Part shown: positions 1-64,000 of the stretch, piece by piece | Position numbering within the stretch: position 1 is the first letter of the stretch | How the letters are laid out: each line of letters starts with the position of its first letter | From: an uncultured Pontibacter sp. | GTDB lineage: Bacteria; Bacteroidota; Bacteroidia; Cytophagales; Hymenobacteraceae | Reading direction: 5' to 3' | Length of the DNA stretch: 64,000 nucleotides | Assembly: GCF_947499215.1 (NCBI RefSeq) | Contig: NZ_CANMNI010000001.1 | Location: forward strand, 496,001-560,000 | Notes under the pieces: generated by a model | What the model was told of the DNA's origin: nothing | What the model saw: only the letters and a program-made list of their open reading frames with translations | Databases searched by the model: none | Made by a program: the position numbers and the translations under genes

Positions 1-1450
1 ACATCACGCTGTTCATGTCCATCTGCTGGTTGCTCATTTCCATGCCCATCGGTTCCATGTCCCCGCTCATTGTCATCATGTCGTTCATCATCTTCATACC
101 CTCAAAGTAGTTCAGCTTGCCTAAACGCTGTGCCTTCATTTTCATACCCCTGCCCAGCCACAGCGATGTGGTATTGGAACGGTCTTCGGCAGTGGCCAGA
201 AACTCGTACTGCATGTTTTCAGGTATGGTGACCAGCAAATCGTAGGTTTCGGCAGGCGCGATGATCAGGCGGTCCACCTCCACAGGCTCCACATCGTTGC
301 CATCGTTGCCCACCACCGTTAGTTTGCCCCCGGAGTAGGTCAGCCAGAAGTAAGTGGAGGCACCGCCATTCACGACCCTGAGCTTCACCACGTCCCCGGC
401 CGTGAAATGCGTTTGCTCCGCTATATCCTGCCCATTGGTCAGAAATTTTTCATAAGACACATCGCTCACATCCATCGCTTCCATCCGCTTCCACTCATTC
501 TTCAGTTTAGTGCCGAAATGGCCTTTTTTTATGGCCTCCGCATAGCCCTGCGTCGCACCTTTCTGTATAGAAAACCAATCGTTTGCGCTGCGCAATGAGC
601 GGTATACCTCTCTGGGGTTCAAATCTGTCCAGTCGCTTAGCACGATCGGGATGGCCGGCATGTCCGGTTCATTCACTTTATGAAAGATCAGGGCACCGTA
701 CATGCCGCTCTGTTCCTGAAAGGCGCTGTGGCTGTGGTACCAGTATGTACCATTCTGTATGATCGGGAATTTGTAGAGGTAAGTGGAATGAGGCTTGATC
801 GGCTGCTGGGTAAGCCAGGGCACTCCATCGAACCGGTTGGGCAGGAACACCCCGTGCCAATGTATGGAAGTTTCCACATCCATCTCATTGTGCACGTAGA
901 TCTCGGCCGTGTCGCCCTGGGTAAAGGTCAGGGCGGGCGCCGGAATGCTGCCATTTATTGCCACGGCTCTTCTGGTTCTGCCTGTGAAGTTGACCAGCGT
1001 GTCCCGCACATACAGGTCGTAACGCACCGTCCGCGGCACACGTCTTTGGCCCGGGCTCTCCGGCTCATGCCCCGCTTTATGGACGGGCTTCTCTATTTCC
1101 TCCGGGTTCTGTACAGGTGTGACAGGGTCTTTCTGTGTCGGCTTCGCCTGATGCTGAACAGGCTTTGCTTTTTGCTGCTGCACCGGTTTTTTAGCCGGTG
1201 TGGCGGGTTTGGCTTTCACAGCTTTTTTTGGTGGAGCCTGCTCTTGCTTAGCCGGAGCTTTTGGTTTTTGCTTCACCAGCGTCATGCCGCACTTGGGACA
1301 TTTGCCCGGTTTTGTGCTTTGCACCTCGGGATGCATCGGGCAGGTATAGATATCAGTCTGCTGTTGCTGGGTTGGTTTGTGGTGCTCGTGCTGCGCGTAG
1401 GTAAAGGGAGCGGTTCCGAGCAGCAGCAGTGTGATCAAAAGCTTATACAT
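1..1450 (-). CDS. Multicopper oxidase with N-terminal heavy-metal-binding domain (CopA-like), C-terminal part outside window
   Basis: The open frame starts at the ATG read from 1450 and runs off the left edge after about 483 codons, so the gene is 3'-truncated by the window. Residues 1-20 form a signal peptide. A short metal-binding domain follows, with CPMHPEV at about 37-43 and CPKCGM at about 51-56, then a Lys/Pro/Gln-rich linker. The cupredoxin part shows copper-ligand motifs HWHG and HSHS, which in this family hold the trinuclear copper site. A Met-rich patch lies near the window edge. The family oxidises Cu(I) in the periplasm. The remaining C-terminal ligands cannot be seen. The adjacent copper genes support a copper role. 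The fusion of the CPMHP domain to the oxidase is directly visible. Confidence 0.9.
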   Translation of the reverse strand, partial: MYKLLITLLLLGTAPFTYAQHEHHKPTQQQQTDIYTCPMHPEVQSTKPGKCPKCGMTLVKQKPKAPAKQEQAPPKKAVKAKPATPAKKPVQQQKAKPVQHQAKPTQKDPVTPVQNPEEIEKPVHKAGHEPESPGQRRVPRTVRYDLYVRDTLVNFTGRTRRAVAINGSIPAPALTFTQGDTAEIYVHNEMDVETSIHWHGVFLPNRFDGVPWLTQQPIKPHSTYLYKFPIIQNGTYWYHSHSAFQEQSGMYGALIFHKVNEPDMPAIPIVLSDWTDLNPREVYRSLRSANDWFSIQKGATQGYAEAIKKGHFGTKLKNEWKRMEAMDVSDVSYEKFLTNGQDIAEQTHFTAGDVVKLRVVNGGASTYFWLTYSGGKLTVVGNDGNDVEPVEVDRLIIAPAETYDLLVTIPENMQYEFLATAEDRSNTTSLWLGRGMKMKAQRLGKLNYFEGMKMMNDMMTMSGDMEPMGMEMSNQQMDMNSVM

Positions 1451-1595
1451 CGTTATCTTTCATTTATGAAAAGGGCTATTCATAGTGTCTTCTATCTTAG
1501 GCTATGACCATAAAAAACACCCTGACCGCTACTATGAATTATAGAGCAATCAGGGTGATGCTTTGGTCATGCATTTCGTCAGCATGCAAAGACAA

Positions 1596-1919
1596 TTATG
1601 CCTGCTGGCAGGCCTGCTCGCAACGGCGGCAAGCTTCGGCGCACATCTGGCAGTGGTCGTGCTTGTGCTTGGCGCACTCCTCGCCACATGCACGGCATGC
1701 CTTGGCGCACAGGTCCAGCACTTCTCGCTTCATCGTGGAGTCACGCGCCACATAGTCCATCGCCATTTTACAGATGGCGGCGCAGTCCAAATCAAGGCGG
1801 ATGCAGCGCTCCATCATTTTCACATCGTCCTCCTTCAGACAGGAAACGGCACAGTAGTTACATGCTGCTGCGCATTCTGCCAGCACACTAATAAGTTCTC
1901 TATTCATAGTTGCGTTCAT
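1596..1919 (-). CDS. Four-helix-bundle copper-binding protein (Csp / DUF326 type)
   Basis: This is a 107-residue protein with 16 cysteines spaced mostly as CxxC or CxxxC along predicted helices (for example ECAAACNYCAVSC near the N-terminus and CAKACRACGEEC in the third helix). This is the pattern of the copper storage proteins, four-helix bundles whose core Cys residues bind many Cu(I) ions. No signal peptide is evident, so a cytosolic form is likely. A second in-frame Met lies five residues in and could be the start. It sits just upstream of the multicopper oxidase on the same strand (145 nt), consistent with co-expression under copper stress. Confidence 0.85.
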   Translation of the reverse strand: MNATMNRELISVLAECAAACNYCAVSCLKEDDVKMMERCIRLDLDCAAICKMAMDYVARDSTMKREVLDLCAKACRACGEECAKHKHDHCQMCAEACRRCEQACQQA

Positions 1920-2187
1920 AGTGAGTATTGTTTGGTTATAAGTCCTCTCTTATACATACCACTTCACGGATCAGTTTTACAGATTTTTGACTAATTTTTA
2001 TAGATAACATCTTCAGCTTCCTCTAAAACATCAAGTTATAGTGTACAAATCAACATGTCTGACTATGGCTATTAAGCTGTAACAAGCCACTCTTTTTTGG
2101 CATTCCTATCCTTTACGATTTTGCAGCCGTACAAATCATGACTGGCATAAAAGATGGTCAGTACGAAGTACAAAACAGAAATAATAA

Positions 2188-2808
2188 ATGGTAGACACTG
2201 ACTGTGAGCAGTTATTGACACTGCATATAAAGAACATGGTATGTCCCCGGTGCATCAAAGTGGTCAGGGACGAATTGCAGACAATTGGTCTGACGGTAAA
2301 AGAAGTGGTTTTAGGCCGGGCTATCGTCCACAGAACCGAGGGCGTATCTTGGGAGGATATACGACAGGTCTTAGGCAATAACGGGTTTGACTTGATTCAG
2401 GATGACGAATCGAAACTAGTAGAACAAACCAAGCTTGTCATTATAAACCTACTGTACCAAGAAAATCCCGAGCAAATCACTAGTACTATTTCGCAATACC
2501 TCGCCCATGTTTTAAATAGAGACTATACCTACATCAGCGCGACATTCAAAGCCTCGGAAAAGATACCGCTCAGTCGCTATGTCATTTTGCAGAAAGTAGA
2601 GCGCGCTAAAGAACTGCTAGAGTACAATGAGCGAAACGTAAGTGAGATCGCCGGCCTGTTAGGGTACAAAAGTGTGCAGCACTTCTCAGCCCAATTCAAA
2701 GAAATAACAGGCATATGCCCACTGAGGTACCGTAACCAGCAACTTTACCAGCGGCAACCGATCTGTGCTATCCAAAATCTGAAAGAGACTCTGTCAGAAT
2801 TAAAATAA
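2188..2808 (+). CDS. AraC-family regulator with N-terminal heavy-metal-associated-like domain
   Basis: The 206-residue protein starts with a ferredoxin-like, HMA-type segment carrying the metal motif MVCPRC (Cys19 and Cys22). After a middle segment it ends in an AraC/XylS helix-turn-helix region of about 100 residues (ISEIAGLLGY-like text at VSEIAGLLGYKS, then HFSAQFKEITG, typical of the second AraC helix pair). The combination suggests a copper-sensing transcriptional activator or repressor. It lies between the divergently oriented oxidase/Csp pair and the copper ATPase, the natural place for a local regulator. The ligand and target promoters are inferred, not shown. Confidence 0.8.
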   Translation: MVDTDCEQLLTLHIKNMVCPRCIKVVRDELQTIGLTVKEVVLGRAIVHRTEGVSWEDIRQVLGNNGFDLIQDDESKLVEQTKLVIINLLYQENPEQITSTISQYLAHVLNRDYTYISATFKASEKIPLSRYVILQKVERAKELLEYNERNVSEIAGLLGYKSVQHFSAQFKEITGICPLRYRNQQLYQRQPICAIQNLKETLSELK

Positions 2809-2841
2809 AAATTTAATGACTCCATAAAATCCATACCCACT

Positions 2842-62881: not shown

Positions 62882-62993
62882 AGTTTTCAGGTTAATTTAA
62901 GTGTGTGGTTAATAATTTCAGTTCTAGAGTGTGCTTAACAACCCTACTTTAGTTATACTGCAAAACCGCTGGCGTAGACATATATTCACAAGG

Positions 62994-63025
62994 TTTTGGG
63001 ATTCAATGGAATATTAGTACTTTTG
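62994..63025 (+). promoter_or_regulatory. Bacteroidota-type promoter for prfC
   Basis: TTTTG (62994-62998) and TACTTTTG (63018-63025), 19-nt spacing. It gives a leader of about 135 nt before the prfC ATG. Confidence 0.6.
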
Positions 63026-63083
63026 CATCCTGAAATGTACGCCTTACTTTTACATAGCGTCCCTACTCCACCCTGATTCTTAT

Positions 63084-63102
63084 TTTACCCATTCTGGGTA
63101 AA
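63084..63102 (+). promoter_or_regulatory. Hairpin in the prfC leader
   Basis: TTTACCCA and TGGGTAAA, perfect 8-bp arms around TTC, in the transcribed leader. Function unknown; could be a regulatory or stability element. Confidence 0.35.
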
Positions 63103-63164
63103 GAGTTATTCTATATCATTTTTTTCAATAAAGGTCCGTAAGGATCTGCCTTATTCTAAGCTTC

Positions 63165-64000
63165 ATGGTTTCAGAAGAAATCCTGCGTAGACGCACGTTT
63201 GCCATTATCAGTCACCCCGATGCCGGTAAGACGACCCTTACTGAGAAACTACTCTTGTTCGGGGGAGCGATCAACACAGCGGGAGCTGTCAAGAGCAACA
63301 AAATCACTAAATCCGCCACTTCTGACTTTCTCGAGATCGAGAAACAGCGCGGTATATCCGTTGCCACGTCGGTGATGGGTTTTGATTATGCCGGGCACAA
63401 GATCAACATCCTGGACACACCAGGTCATAAGGACTTTGCAGAGGACACCTACCGCACGCTCTCGGCTGTGGACAGTGTGATTCTGGTAGTGGACTGCGTA
63501 AAAGGTGTGGAGGAACAGACCCGCAACCTAATGCAGGTATGCCGCATGCGCAACACGCCAGTGATCGTTTTCATCAACAAGATGGACCGTGAGGGTCGCG
63601 ACCCCTACGAGTTGCTGGACGAACTGGAACGGGAGCTCAATATACACGTGCGGCCGCTGAGCTGGCCAATCGGAATGGGCTCTACTTTCAAAGGCGTATA
63701 CAACCTGTATGATAAGGACCTTCGTCTTTTCACAGCCAACAAACAACAGCTTACCAAGGACGTCATCGCCATCGAGGACATTAATGGAACGGAGCTGGAC
63801 GAGATCATTGGAAAGCAATCCGCTGACACCCTGCGTTCCGATGCCGATTTCCTGAACGAGTTTTACGAGGACTTCGATCTCGGTCTGTATAAGGAGGGTT
63901 ACTTGGCACCCGTGTTTTTCGGCAGTGCCATCTATAACTTTGGCGTGGGCGAACTGCTCGACACCTTCGTTAAGATCGCTCCTTCGCCGCAAACGATTGA
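63165..64000 (+). CDS. prfC: Peptide chain release factor 3, N-terminal part
   Basis: Begins at the ATG at 63165 and runs past the window end, so the C-terminal half is missing. GTPase motifs are in order: G1 [14 protein letters not shown] (about 17-30), the RGIS switch motif near residue 65, G3 DTPGHKDF (about 84-91), G4 NKMD near 138 and the G5 region GSAIYNFGV near 260. The GS-type G domain of RF3 recycles release factors 1 and 2 from ribosomes. No extension is needed to reach the family's usual start. Confidence 0.93.

What the first reader, a model, noticed from the sequence alone, without database searches (positions are those of the whole stretch)
1..64000. Octamer TATACCTG (CAGGTATA) is strongly over-represented throughout
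By eye, the exact octamer occurs at least 22 times in one orientation (for example near 6623, 22878, 26668, 31310, 35293, 45371, 48083, 50545, 55072, 61210) and at least 14 in the other (near 1341, 7610, 13478, 24976, 30238, 39116, 49030, 62170). About 2 total are expected by chance in 64 kb. Copies lie in all codon frames (ATA-CCT Ile-Pro, GTA-TAC-CTG Val-Tyr-Leu, TAT-ACC Tyr-Thr), including the otherwise rare ATA codon, and between genes, so codon or protein bias alone does not explain it. It behaves like an HIP1-type or chi/KOPS/uptake-type genome motif. I know of no such description for this octamer, but could not search.
Basis: partly seen in the sequence, partly recalled or inferred. Interest (0 to 1): 0.8.

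Follow-up and report, generated by a model that had tools for sequence, protein, structure and literature searches.

The report
Genome-wide DNA tag with species dialects
A soil and water bacterium carries thousands of copies of one short DNA word that its relatives carry in altered spellings, much like the self-recognition tags that some bacteria use to choose which DNA to take up, but in a bacterial group where our searches found no such tag described and without the usual uptake pili.

Summary
The genus is almost certainly Pontibacter (Bacteroidota). The real unit is the heptamer TATACCT with soft flanks, in both orientations, inside and between genes, not explained by codons and not polarised along the chromosome. 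The main new result is dialects: of the 50 genomes of the genus held, 12 use TATACCT, 19 TATACTT, 4 TATAGTT (up to 13,168 copies), 5 mix the last two, 2 show divergent forms and 8 no clear motif. Dialects follow the comEC tree. TATACCT and TATAGTT sites are kept between species 1.6 to 2.1 times as often as control words (TATACTT sites are not), and sites of one dialect often become the other in place. DNA uptake sequences of Neisseria behave like this. The genus has ComEC and DprA in 50 of 50 genomes, with stops in both only in the same two, but no type IV pilus motor. Best reading: a pilus-independent, uptake-sequence-like self-recognition system (0.5). Rivals: a HIP-like repair or methylation drive, or a Chi-like signal. 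The recogniser was not found.

The parts
1341..1348 (-). TATACCTG
6267..6274 (-). TATACCTG
6623..6630 (+). TATACCTG
7607..7614 (-). TATACCTG
13463..13470 (-). TATACCTG
19363..19370 (+). TATACCTG
21365..21372 (-). TATACCTG
22877..22884 (+). TATACCTG
24852..24859 (-). TATACCTG
24976..24983 (-). TATACCTG
25288..25295 (+). TATACCTG
26667..26674 (+). TATACCTG
27324..27331 (+). TATACCTG
27923..27930 (-). TATACCTG
30239..30246 (-). TATACCTG
30719..30726 (-). TATACCTG
31300..31307 (+). TATACCTG
31648..31655 (+). TATACCTG
35291..35298 (+). TATACCTG
35605..35612 (+). TATACCTG
35891..35898 (+). TATACCTG
37180..37187 (+). TATACCTG
39115..39122 (-). TATACCTG
41739..41746 (+). TATACCTG
42333..42340 (+). TATACCTG
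42909..42916 (+). TATACCTG
45371..45378 (+). TATACCTG
45421..45428 (+). TATACCTG
47194..47201 (+). TATACCTG
48084..48091 (+). TATACCTG
49029..49036 (-). TATACCTG
50544..50551 (+). TATACCTG
54888..54895 (+). TATACCTG
55072..55079 (+). TATACCTG
55299..55306 (-). TATACCTG
61209..61216 (+). TATACCTG
62170..62177 (-). TATACCTG
1..64000 (.). All 79 copies of the core heptamer TATACCT (45 on +, 34 on -), the 37 above included. Lowest coordinate of the 42 others: on + 603, 2524, 6734, 16653, 22927, 24062, 30011, 30559, 30933, 31579, 31669, 37487, 37970, 38209, 39816, 45109, 45408, 47570, 48631, 51001, 56107, 59191; on - 4498, 8099, 14334, 16251, 17237, 20713, 21387, 24059, 24200, 25052, 32460, 39955, 44674, 47078, 47567, 54721, 61679, 61745, 61751, 62261
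   Evidence: 79 observed, 8.6 expected (second-order Markov)
29066..32356 (+). Example of a dense stretch: pyruvate dehydrogenase genes (E1 alpha, the next ORF, E2) holding 9 core heptamers in 3.3 kb
   Evidence: gene identity; positions

Best explanation
TATACCT is this species' form (dialect) of a self-recognition tag that works like a DNA uptake sequence. A protein that reads the tag, probably at the cell surface, favours DNA that carries it during natural transformation; the DNA then passes ComEC, is protected by DprA and recombines into the chromosome. Because tagged alleles come in more often than untagged ones, tags accumulate and are kept at thousands of places without selection on each single place. 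When the reader protein changes its preference (CC to CT, or CT to GT, after the fixed TATA), the whole genome is rewritten step by step, partly at the same places, giving dialects. Shown here: the enrichment, the dialects, site maintenance in two dialect groups, in-place switching, scarcity in the mobile DNA looked at, ComEC and DprA domains without stops in 48 of 50 genomes. Inferred: that uptake is the driving step, that the genus is transformable at all, and that a surface receptor other than a type IV pilus reads the tag.
For: (1) Three abundant dialects sharing TATA and a final T, whole-genome counts in all 50 genus genomes held, clustered on a ComEC protein tree (7 changes of label against 27.1 shuffled). 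Mixed genomes carry two dialects at once, as reported for Simonsiella muelleri in Neisseriaceae (PMC3630211, section read). (2) Maintenance: aligned TATACCT sites kept in 927 of 1371 ordered comparisons (0.68) between seven TATACCT genomes, permuted control words 3432 of 10460 (0.33); TATAGTT 164 of 246 (0.67) against 0.41. (3) In-place switch: TATACTT sites read TATACCT in the TATACCT genomes in 30 of 142 comparisons (0.21) against 0.03 for the same letter change in control words; 9 of 32 distinct sites; in the other direction 31 of 291 (0.11) against 0.05. One orthologous gene, comEC, carries each class's own word: 4.26, 3.87 and 4.95 per kb, against 0.05-0.46 in the 10 unassigned genomes. 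(4) Double-strand, orientation-free: sense 205, antisense 189, intergenic 139; no strong strand polarity. (5) Scarce in mobile DNA: 1 copy in 20 kb of a relaxase-bearing island of G028, 22 to 36 in seven other 20 kb samples of the class; P. akesuensis plasmid about 2-fold at most on small counts, P. actiniarum plasmid 3.7-fold. (6) Competence genes: ComEC 50 of 50, DprA 50 of 50; stops inside the matched domain occur in both genes in the same two genomes only, G009 and G021, with the neighbouring comEC-region orthologues free of stops. G021 has the lowest TATACTT density of its nine-genome subclade (1.00 against 1.24-2.31 per kb) and the largest genome of the 40 in the four dialect classes.
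Against: No type IV pilus or type II secretion motor was found in any of 50 genomes, so the only proven kind of sequence-specific receptor is missing, and no candidate receptor was found. ComEC and DprA are also free of stops in the genomes without a clear motif, so motif loss is not competence loss. G009, with both genes broken, has the highest octamer count of the 12, which must be put down to recent loss. G021's broken comEC still holds 6 TATACTT, within the 6 to 11 of its sisters, and G019, with both genes free of stops, has a lower genome density (0.82 per kb) than G021. Retention was not above control among the three TATACTT loci (10 of 44, 0.23 against 0.24) nor for TATACTT in mixed genomes (22 of 77, 0.29 against 0.31). 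Sites are not evenly spaced; they cluster slightly. A DUF5689 protein, a lead from the Riemerella competence screen, does not track the motif. The search for competence work on this genus listed no paper that holds the word Pontibacter (10 of 218 shown).
Confidence: 0.5

Rival explanations
1. HIP-like drive: a DNA methyltransferase or a sequence-specific mismatch repair activity recognises the word and converts near-misses into it; dialects arise when the enzyme changes specificity, as for the alternate HIPs of cyanobacteria.
For: Alternate HIPs with matching methyltransferases and a repair model are described (PMC4390886, abstract seen). Density and orientation-free spread are alike; HIP1 shows up in the same kind of test in Pseudanabaena. 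Mismatches inside positions 2 to 6 are mostly not enriched, as expected for an enzyme.
Against: The word is not a palindrome. PF01555 methyltransferases are absent from the own genome and 12 other motif-bearing genomes and present in G002, G023, G025 and G060 of the unassigned ones. PF07669 hits are patchy (47 of 50 genomes, many weak or partial); the own genome's best is E 8e-10 over part of the profile. The C to G dialect change is a transversion, which a T:G repair enzyme would not make (inference). Other methyltransferase families (such as PF00145, PF02384, PF02086) were not searched.
Confidence: 0.2
2. Chi-like signal: the word tells an AddAB-type nuclease-helicase to stop degrading and start recombination, and dialects follow AddB changes.
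For: An AddB-like protein of about 970 to 1,020 aa is found in 50 of 50 genomes. Chi words differ between bacterial groups (recalled, no call). Chi-promoted recombination could also spread the word.
Against: No strong strand polarity; up to one copy per 330 bases would leave little room for exonuclease action. AddB is equally present in genomes without the motif.
Confidence: 0.1
3. Binding sites of an abundant chromosome-organising or regulatory protein whose specificity drifted between lineages.
For: Soft flanks and tolerance of C at position 1 look like protein binding. Overlapping palindromic pairs (AGGTATACCT, AAGTATACTT, AACTATAGTT) are frequent at spacing 3.
Against: Selection on each of thousands of weak sites is implausible (inference); copies lie inside genes as well as between them, with no regular spacing and no large-scale strand pattern.
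Confidence: 0.08
4. Composition, codon bias or a dispersed repeat family.
For: None beyond two tandem TATACC arrays.
Against: Dinucleotide, Markov and synonymous-codon nulls all fail; flanks beyond two bases are close to random.
Confidence: 0.01

Closest known systems
DNA uptake sequences (DUS) of Neisseriaceae and their dialects (PMC3630211: abstract, outline and section 'DUS dialects' seen)
   Same: Thousands of copies, several dialects with a fixed core that follow the phylogeny, one genome with two dialects at once, family members without any.
   Different: Bacteroidota, not Betaproteobacteria; 7-mer TATA[C/G][C/T]T rather than a 10-12-mer with CTG core; no type IV pilus motor, hence no ComP-type minor pilin machine; uptake effect not tested.
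Uptake signal sequences (USS) of Pasteurellaceae (search listings only)
   Same: Genome-wide self-DNA word attributed to biased uptake.
   Different: Pilus-based, other phylum, other word.
HIP1 and alternate HIPs of cyanobacteria (PMC4390886: abstract and outline seen)
   Same: Very high density; replaced by another word in some lineages.
   Different: HIPs are GC-rich palindromes with matching methyltransferases; this word is asymmetric and no matching methyltransferase was found in the two families searched.
Natural transformation of Riemerella (PMC8459023: abstract, outline and two sections; PMC7965970: passages and two sections)
   Same: Bacteroidota; ComEC and DprA needed in R. anatipestifer; R. 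columbina prefers its own DNA.
   Different: No short over-represented word of this kind is reported there (its top k-mers are A-rich); the outer-membrane components found there were not located here.

Membership tests
DNA uptake sequence (DUS/USS) | Short word in hundreds to thousands of copies, both orientations | tested here: met
DNA uptake sequence (DUS/USS) | Dialects with a shared core that follow the phylogeny | tested here: met
DNA uptake sequence (DUS/USS) | Core transformation genes ComEC and DprA present | tested here: met
   50 of 50 each, stops in the same 2; ComEC of a third (G017) has a frame change
DNA uptake sequence (DUS/USS) | Type IV pilus machine with a ComP/ComN-type minor pilin receptor | tested here: not met
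   no PilB/PilT/GspE-like match; only Walker-type hits of about 25 to 66 profile positions, 3 of 50 genomes just over the cut-off (in most genomes 31 of 32-45 candidates were scored). Minor pilins themselves were not searched. So not filed as a pilus-type DUS
DNA uptake sequence (DUS/USS) | The word raises uptake or transformation | not testable with these tools
   needs an assay
DNA uptake sequence (DUS/USS) | Copies often paired as inverted repeats that act as terminators (common trait, recalled) | tested here: not met
   pairs closer than 60 bases in TATACCT loci are 78 direct, 23 divergent, 11 convergent; in the other classes inverted pairs about equal direct ones, many of them overlapping at spacing 3
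HIP1-type word | Palindrome | tested here: not met
   sequence
HIP1-type word | Matching DNA methyltransferase in motif-bearing genomes | tested here: inconclusive
   PF01555 and PF07669 do not track the motif; other families not searched
Chi | Strand polarity with respect to replication | tested here: not met
Chi | RecBCD/AddAB-type enzyme present | tested here: met
   AddB-like in 50 of 50
KOPS | Strong polarity towards the terminus | tested here: not met

The most novel reading that the evidence does not exclude
Pontibacter has a sequence-specific natural transformation system that reads a 7-base tag without type IV pili, through an unknown Bacteroidota surface receptor whose specificity has shifted at least twice in one genus, rewriting thousands of chromosomal sites each time and separating species by DNA dialect.
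Probability: 0.42. Interest if true: 0.92.

Novelty: new variant of a known kind. Interest (0 to 1): 0.82.

Why it matters
Uptake words are, as far as the searches here showed, reported from two pilus-bearing families, Neisseriaceae and Pasteurellaceae. A genus of Bacteroidota with three or more dialects, mixed genomes, motif-free relatives and two lineages with broken comEC and dprA gives an independent replicate of dialect evolution, and a way to find a first pilus-free DNA receptor: look for the protein that changes with the dialect. It would also let one test the old question whether such words are kept by biased uptake or by function inside the cell.

Tried and rejected
Chi and KOPS polarity and even spacing: not seen. 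Methyltransferases PF01555 and PF07669: no group present in all motif-bearing and absent in motif-free genomes; the recurrent hits in ORFs of 1,165-1,211 aa cover only about 65 to 85 profile positions and were taken as chance, without a closer look. DUF5689: in 22 of 50, no tie to the motif. Genes beside comEC: amidohydrolases, DEAD helicase, RecQ, AIR synthase, different between genomes, so not the receptor. First organism look-up with a pyruvate dehydrogenase subunit brought no named Pontibacter or Hymenobacter genome; the name comes from plasmid matches. A first look by 20 kb samples made G028 look motif-poor because the sample was a mobile island; its whole-genome octamer count (1916 + 1860) shows otherwise. 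My first 'none' class of 10 held two divergent forms (G036 and G060); with them moved, the genome-size difference remains (8 against 42, means 5.91 and 4.63 Mb, p = 1.5e-5; as first split, 10 against 40, 5.79 and 4.60 Mb, p = 3e-6), neither corrected for phylogeny. A wider check of assembly quality in G009 and G021 was planned and not possible; it rests on the comEC neighbourhood and on coding fractions of five 20 kb samples (0.61 and 0.67 in two, 0.81-0.87 in three; all 68 samples mean 0.80, sd 0.07).
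Full report
Observation. TATACCTG is present 37 times in the window, 23 on + and 14 on -, against a mean of 1.27 and a maximum of 6 in 100 dinucleotide shuffles. In the assembly that holds the window (4,309,691 bases, 6 contigs) it is present 1103 + 1122 times; the word read backwards 23 + 18 times. In 404 kb of own sequence (window and 17 stretches of 20 kb), strong words under a third-order Markov model are TATACCT (539 against 114), CTATACCT (253 against 26) and TATACCTG (227 against 36). 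The core is the heptamer. Around it position -1 avoids A (7%) and prefers C, -2 avoids A, +1 avoids C, and beyond two bases on either side the flanks are close to random. Single mismatches in positions 2 to 6 are mostly not enriched; C at position 1 and C or G at position 7 are, by 1.7 to 3.0 fold, in TATACCT genomes and not in the other classes; likewise CATACTT is 4.6-fold in TATACTT genomes and CATAGTT 3.6-fold in TATAGTT genomes.

Controls. In 404 kb with my own simple gene calls (282 genes, 78.5% coding), heptamers are 205 sense, 189 antisense and 139 fully intergenic, 1.24 and 1.58 per kb; shuffling synonymous codons within genes leaves 26 and 23. In 15 further TATACCT loci (one of them own), 23 TATACTT and 6 TATAGTT loci the intergenic density is 1.9 to 3.5 times the genic one, so genes do resist the word somewhat. 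Strand use is a coin toss over 33 TATACCT loci (dominant strand 0.576, null 0.567, sd 0.009), slightly uneven over 23 TATACTT loci (0.598, null 0.569, sd 0.011) and 6 TATAGTT loci (0.586, null 0.549, sd 0.015), far from the roughly three to one of E. coli Chi (that figure is recalled). Spacing is not even; close pairs are in mild excess, partly from overlapping palindromic pairs at distance 3 and, in TATACCT loci, from two tandem TATACC arrays.

Which organism. Window proteins include a TamL lipoprotein, which I take (from memory) as typical of Bacteroidota. The two best plasmid matches are Pontibacter actiniarum (82% identity over 16% of the query) and P. akesuensis (76% over 11%). The family draw of 200 genomes holds six genera, of which the own genus has 50 genomes. 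I take the genus as Pontibacter; no call names the window's genome itself.

Dialects. Searches (9 genomes, 40 kb each; 42 genus genomes sampled besides the own) showed that most relatives have a different top word. Whole-genome counts in all 50 genus genomes (for TATACCTG, for TATACTT, for TATAGTT) give these classes, which I set by eye from the counts: TATACCT 12 (1103-2376 octamers per strand; the heptamer itself was not counted genome-wide); TATACTT 19 (2052-6004 per strand; reversed word 134-315); TATAGTT 4 (6238-6652 per strand, 12,524 to 13,168 copies; reversed word 287-427); both TATACTT and TATAGTT 5 (one of them, G007, weak); others 10. Of these 10, G036 has a looser form (TATACC 85 against 27.6, CATACC 58 against 30.6) and G060 a dispersed CTATATA/TTATATA excess (62 against 10 and 59 against 14); the other eight (G002, G023, G024, G025, G027, G033, G141, G151) have 1.3 to 2.6 times the reversed-word count for TATACTT. 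Their octamer TATACCTG is still 5 to 22 times the reversed octamer, but the reversed word is a crude control: the same ratio is about 1.5 to 8 in other genera of the family, and the heptamer is at 0.88 of its Markov expectation in the samples of six unassigned genomes. G023 was sampled only in short loci. In other genera of the family the octamer has 6 to 188 copies per strand, and none of 19 samples of other genera had TATACCT, TATACTT or TATAGTT among the four top 7-mers printed.

History. On a ComEC protein tree of the 50 genomes the five labels need 7 changes against 27.1 for shuffled labels; TATACCT and TATAGTT can each be one side of a branch (support 67/99 and 67/4), TATACTT needs 5 changes, mixed 3, and the 10 unassigned genomes 3. 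The tree rests on one gene and has 11 open forks, so the number of switches is approximate.

Maintenance and in-place switching. In the comEC neighbourhood (12 to 15 kb aligned at 81 to 84% identity between the own and six other TATACCT genomes), the seven genomes keep the heptamer in 927 of 1371 ordered comparisons (0.68); 193 permuted words of the same letters are kept in 3432 of 10460 (0.33). With gap-free columns: TATACCT 927 of 1318 (0.70 against 0.34), TATAGTT 164 of 246 (0.67 against 0.41); no excess among three TATACTT loci (10 of 44, 0.23 against 0.24; these are distant and one is G021), nor for TATACTT in mixed genomes (22 of 77, 0.29 against 0.31), but TATAGTT in mixed genomes 54 of 123 (0.44 against 0.25). 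From TATACTT to TATACCT genomes the identical word is rarer than control (6 of 142, 0.04 against 0.15) and the switched word commoner (30 of 142, 0.21 against 0.03); 9 of 32 distinct TATACTT sites read TATACCT in at least one TATACCT genome and 4 read TATACTT. In the other direction the switch is 31 of 291 (0.11 against 0.05). From mixed to TATAGTT genomes the C to G switch is 17 of 117 (0.15 against 0.014). TATACCT sites are identical in unassigned genomes in 8 of 268 (0.03 against 0.13), so most sites are not old. Comparisons share genomes and are not independent, and all come from one region. The comEC gene alone shows the pattern in all 50 genomes: own-class word 4.26, 3.87, 4.95 per kb, other words 0.12 to 0.38 in these three classes, unassigned genomes 0.05 to 0.46. 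comEC is denser in the word than its surroundings (3.3 to 6.2 against 1.8 to 2.8 per kb in the six TATACCT loci with an unbroken gene); I do not know whether this is tolerance of the protein or something more.

Mobile DNA. A 20 kb stretch of G028 with a relaxase, efflux genes and an MmeI-type restriction enzyme has one TATACCT, where seven other 20 kb samples of the class have 22 to 36. A glycosyltransferase-bearing cluster of the own genome (L093) has 9, against a mean of about 27 per 20 kb. The P. akesuensis plasmid stretch (50 kb) has TATACTT 10 against 5.3 and TATACCT 3 against 6.7; 100 kb of the P. actiniarum plasmid has TATACTT 55 against 14.7 and TATACCT 32 against 16.8.

Machinery. ComEC is in 50 of 50 genomes and DprA in 50 of 50. 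Stops within the matched domain are reported for ComEC in G009 and G021 only, and for DprA in G009 and G021 only. In their comEC neighbourhoods the other orthologues tested carry no stop (9 of 9 in G009, 5 of 5 in G021), while ComEC and DprA each carry stops and a frame change; the same scan shows single stops in one other gene each of G005, G125 and G006, partly perhaps from a second, paralogous match. Chance agreement of two pairs out of 50 would be 1 in 1225. So the two genes seem to be lost together, as expected if transformation is their shared job. G017 has a frame change in ComEC with DprA free of stops. G021 has TATACTT at 1.00 per kb against 1.24 to 2.31 in its eight sisters and keeps 2 of 8 widely shared comEC sites where sisters keep 4 to 6 of 7 or 8, though its broken comEC still holds 6 copies in all (sisters 6 to 11) and G019, with both genes free of stops, is at 0.82 per kb; G009 keeps 7 of 9. 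I read this as older and recent loss; the numbers are small and from a broken gene. No genome has a type IV pilus or type II secretion ATPase by PF00437. Genomes without a clear motif are larger (means 5.91 and 4.63 Mb, 8 against 42), as if self-preferring exchange kept foreign DNA out; this is not corrected for phylogeny, and sizes are rounded by the tool.

Interpretation. Orientation-free spread, dialects with a fixed core, mixed genomes, maintenance and in-place rewriting are what one expects of DUS dialects (PMC3630211 for dialects, core and the two-dialect genome). Bacteroidota can be naturally transformed with machinery unlike the known ones: in R. anatipestifer ComEC, DprA, ComF, RecA and four proteins without known counterpart are needed (PMC8459023), and R. 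columbina prefers its own DNA (PMC7965970). I therefore favour an uptake-type drive with an unknown receptor. A HIP-like drive is the main rival, since alternate HIPs come with matching methyltransferases (PMC4390886, abstract). The fact that ComEC and DprA are unbroken in the motif-poor genomes means that loss of the word is loss of preference, not of transformation, if the uptake reading is right.

Literature. Nine listings over the open-access library showed no report of this word, of dialects, or of an uptake sequence in Pontibacter, Hymenobacteraceae or other Bacteroidota beyond the k-mer table of PMC7965970. Only the top of longer listings was shown, and most subscription papers are not held, so this is not proof that nothing is in print.

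Noticed in passing
L083:11456-11528 (own genome C1, about 211456) and L128:19942 to its end (G016): Tandem arrays of the hexamer TATACC (12 units, and at least 9 running to the end of the fetched stretch), in L083 between predicted genes; each unit junction makes the core heptamer. Two TATACCT genomes.
   Followed up: partly
L110, L111, L201 (genome G060): Dispersed CTATATA/TTATATA excess (62 and 59 copies in 60 kb against 10 and 14), not seen in most other genus samples compared; possibly a further dialect.
   Followed up: partly
L108, L109, L172 (genome G036): Looser form TATACC/CATACC; possibly a decaying or relaxed dialect.
   Followed up: partly
L212 and L348 (G009); L217 and L349 (G021): comEC and dprA are both broken in these two genomes while tested neighbours of comEC are not; possible natural competence-loss lineages.
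   Followed up: partly
L135 (G028 C1 20001-40000): Mobile island with relaxase, efflux genes, a CoiA-like nuclease-domain protein and an MmeI-type restriction enzyme, almost free of the motif.
   Followed up: partly
L002 (Saprospiraceae MAG): Another strong word, CGCAGAT (33 copies in 21 kb against 4.1, with CCGCAGA and AATCTGC), in another Bacteroidota lineage.
   Followed up: no
L077 (Anaerolineae MAG): CGGCCGT (99 against 9.2) and GAGATTG (31 against 2.6) in 21 kb; possible genome words of their own, or local repeats.
   Followed up: no
L218:1122-1208 and 1603-1627 (G027): Local 8-base tandem repeats of GGTAGAGA type.
   Followed up: no
window 1-5253 and 10012-12855: Copper P-type ATPase, DUF305 and VKOR/SPW genes match Pontibacter plasmids at 76-82%; the first part of the window may be a metal-resistance region shared with plasmids.
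   Followed up: no
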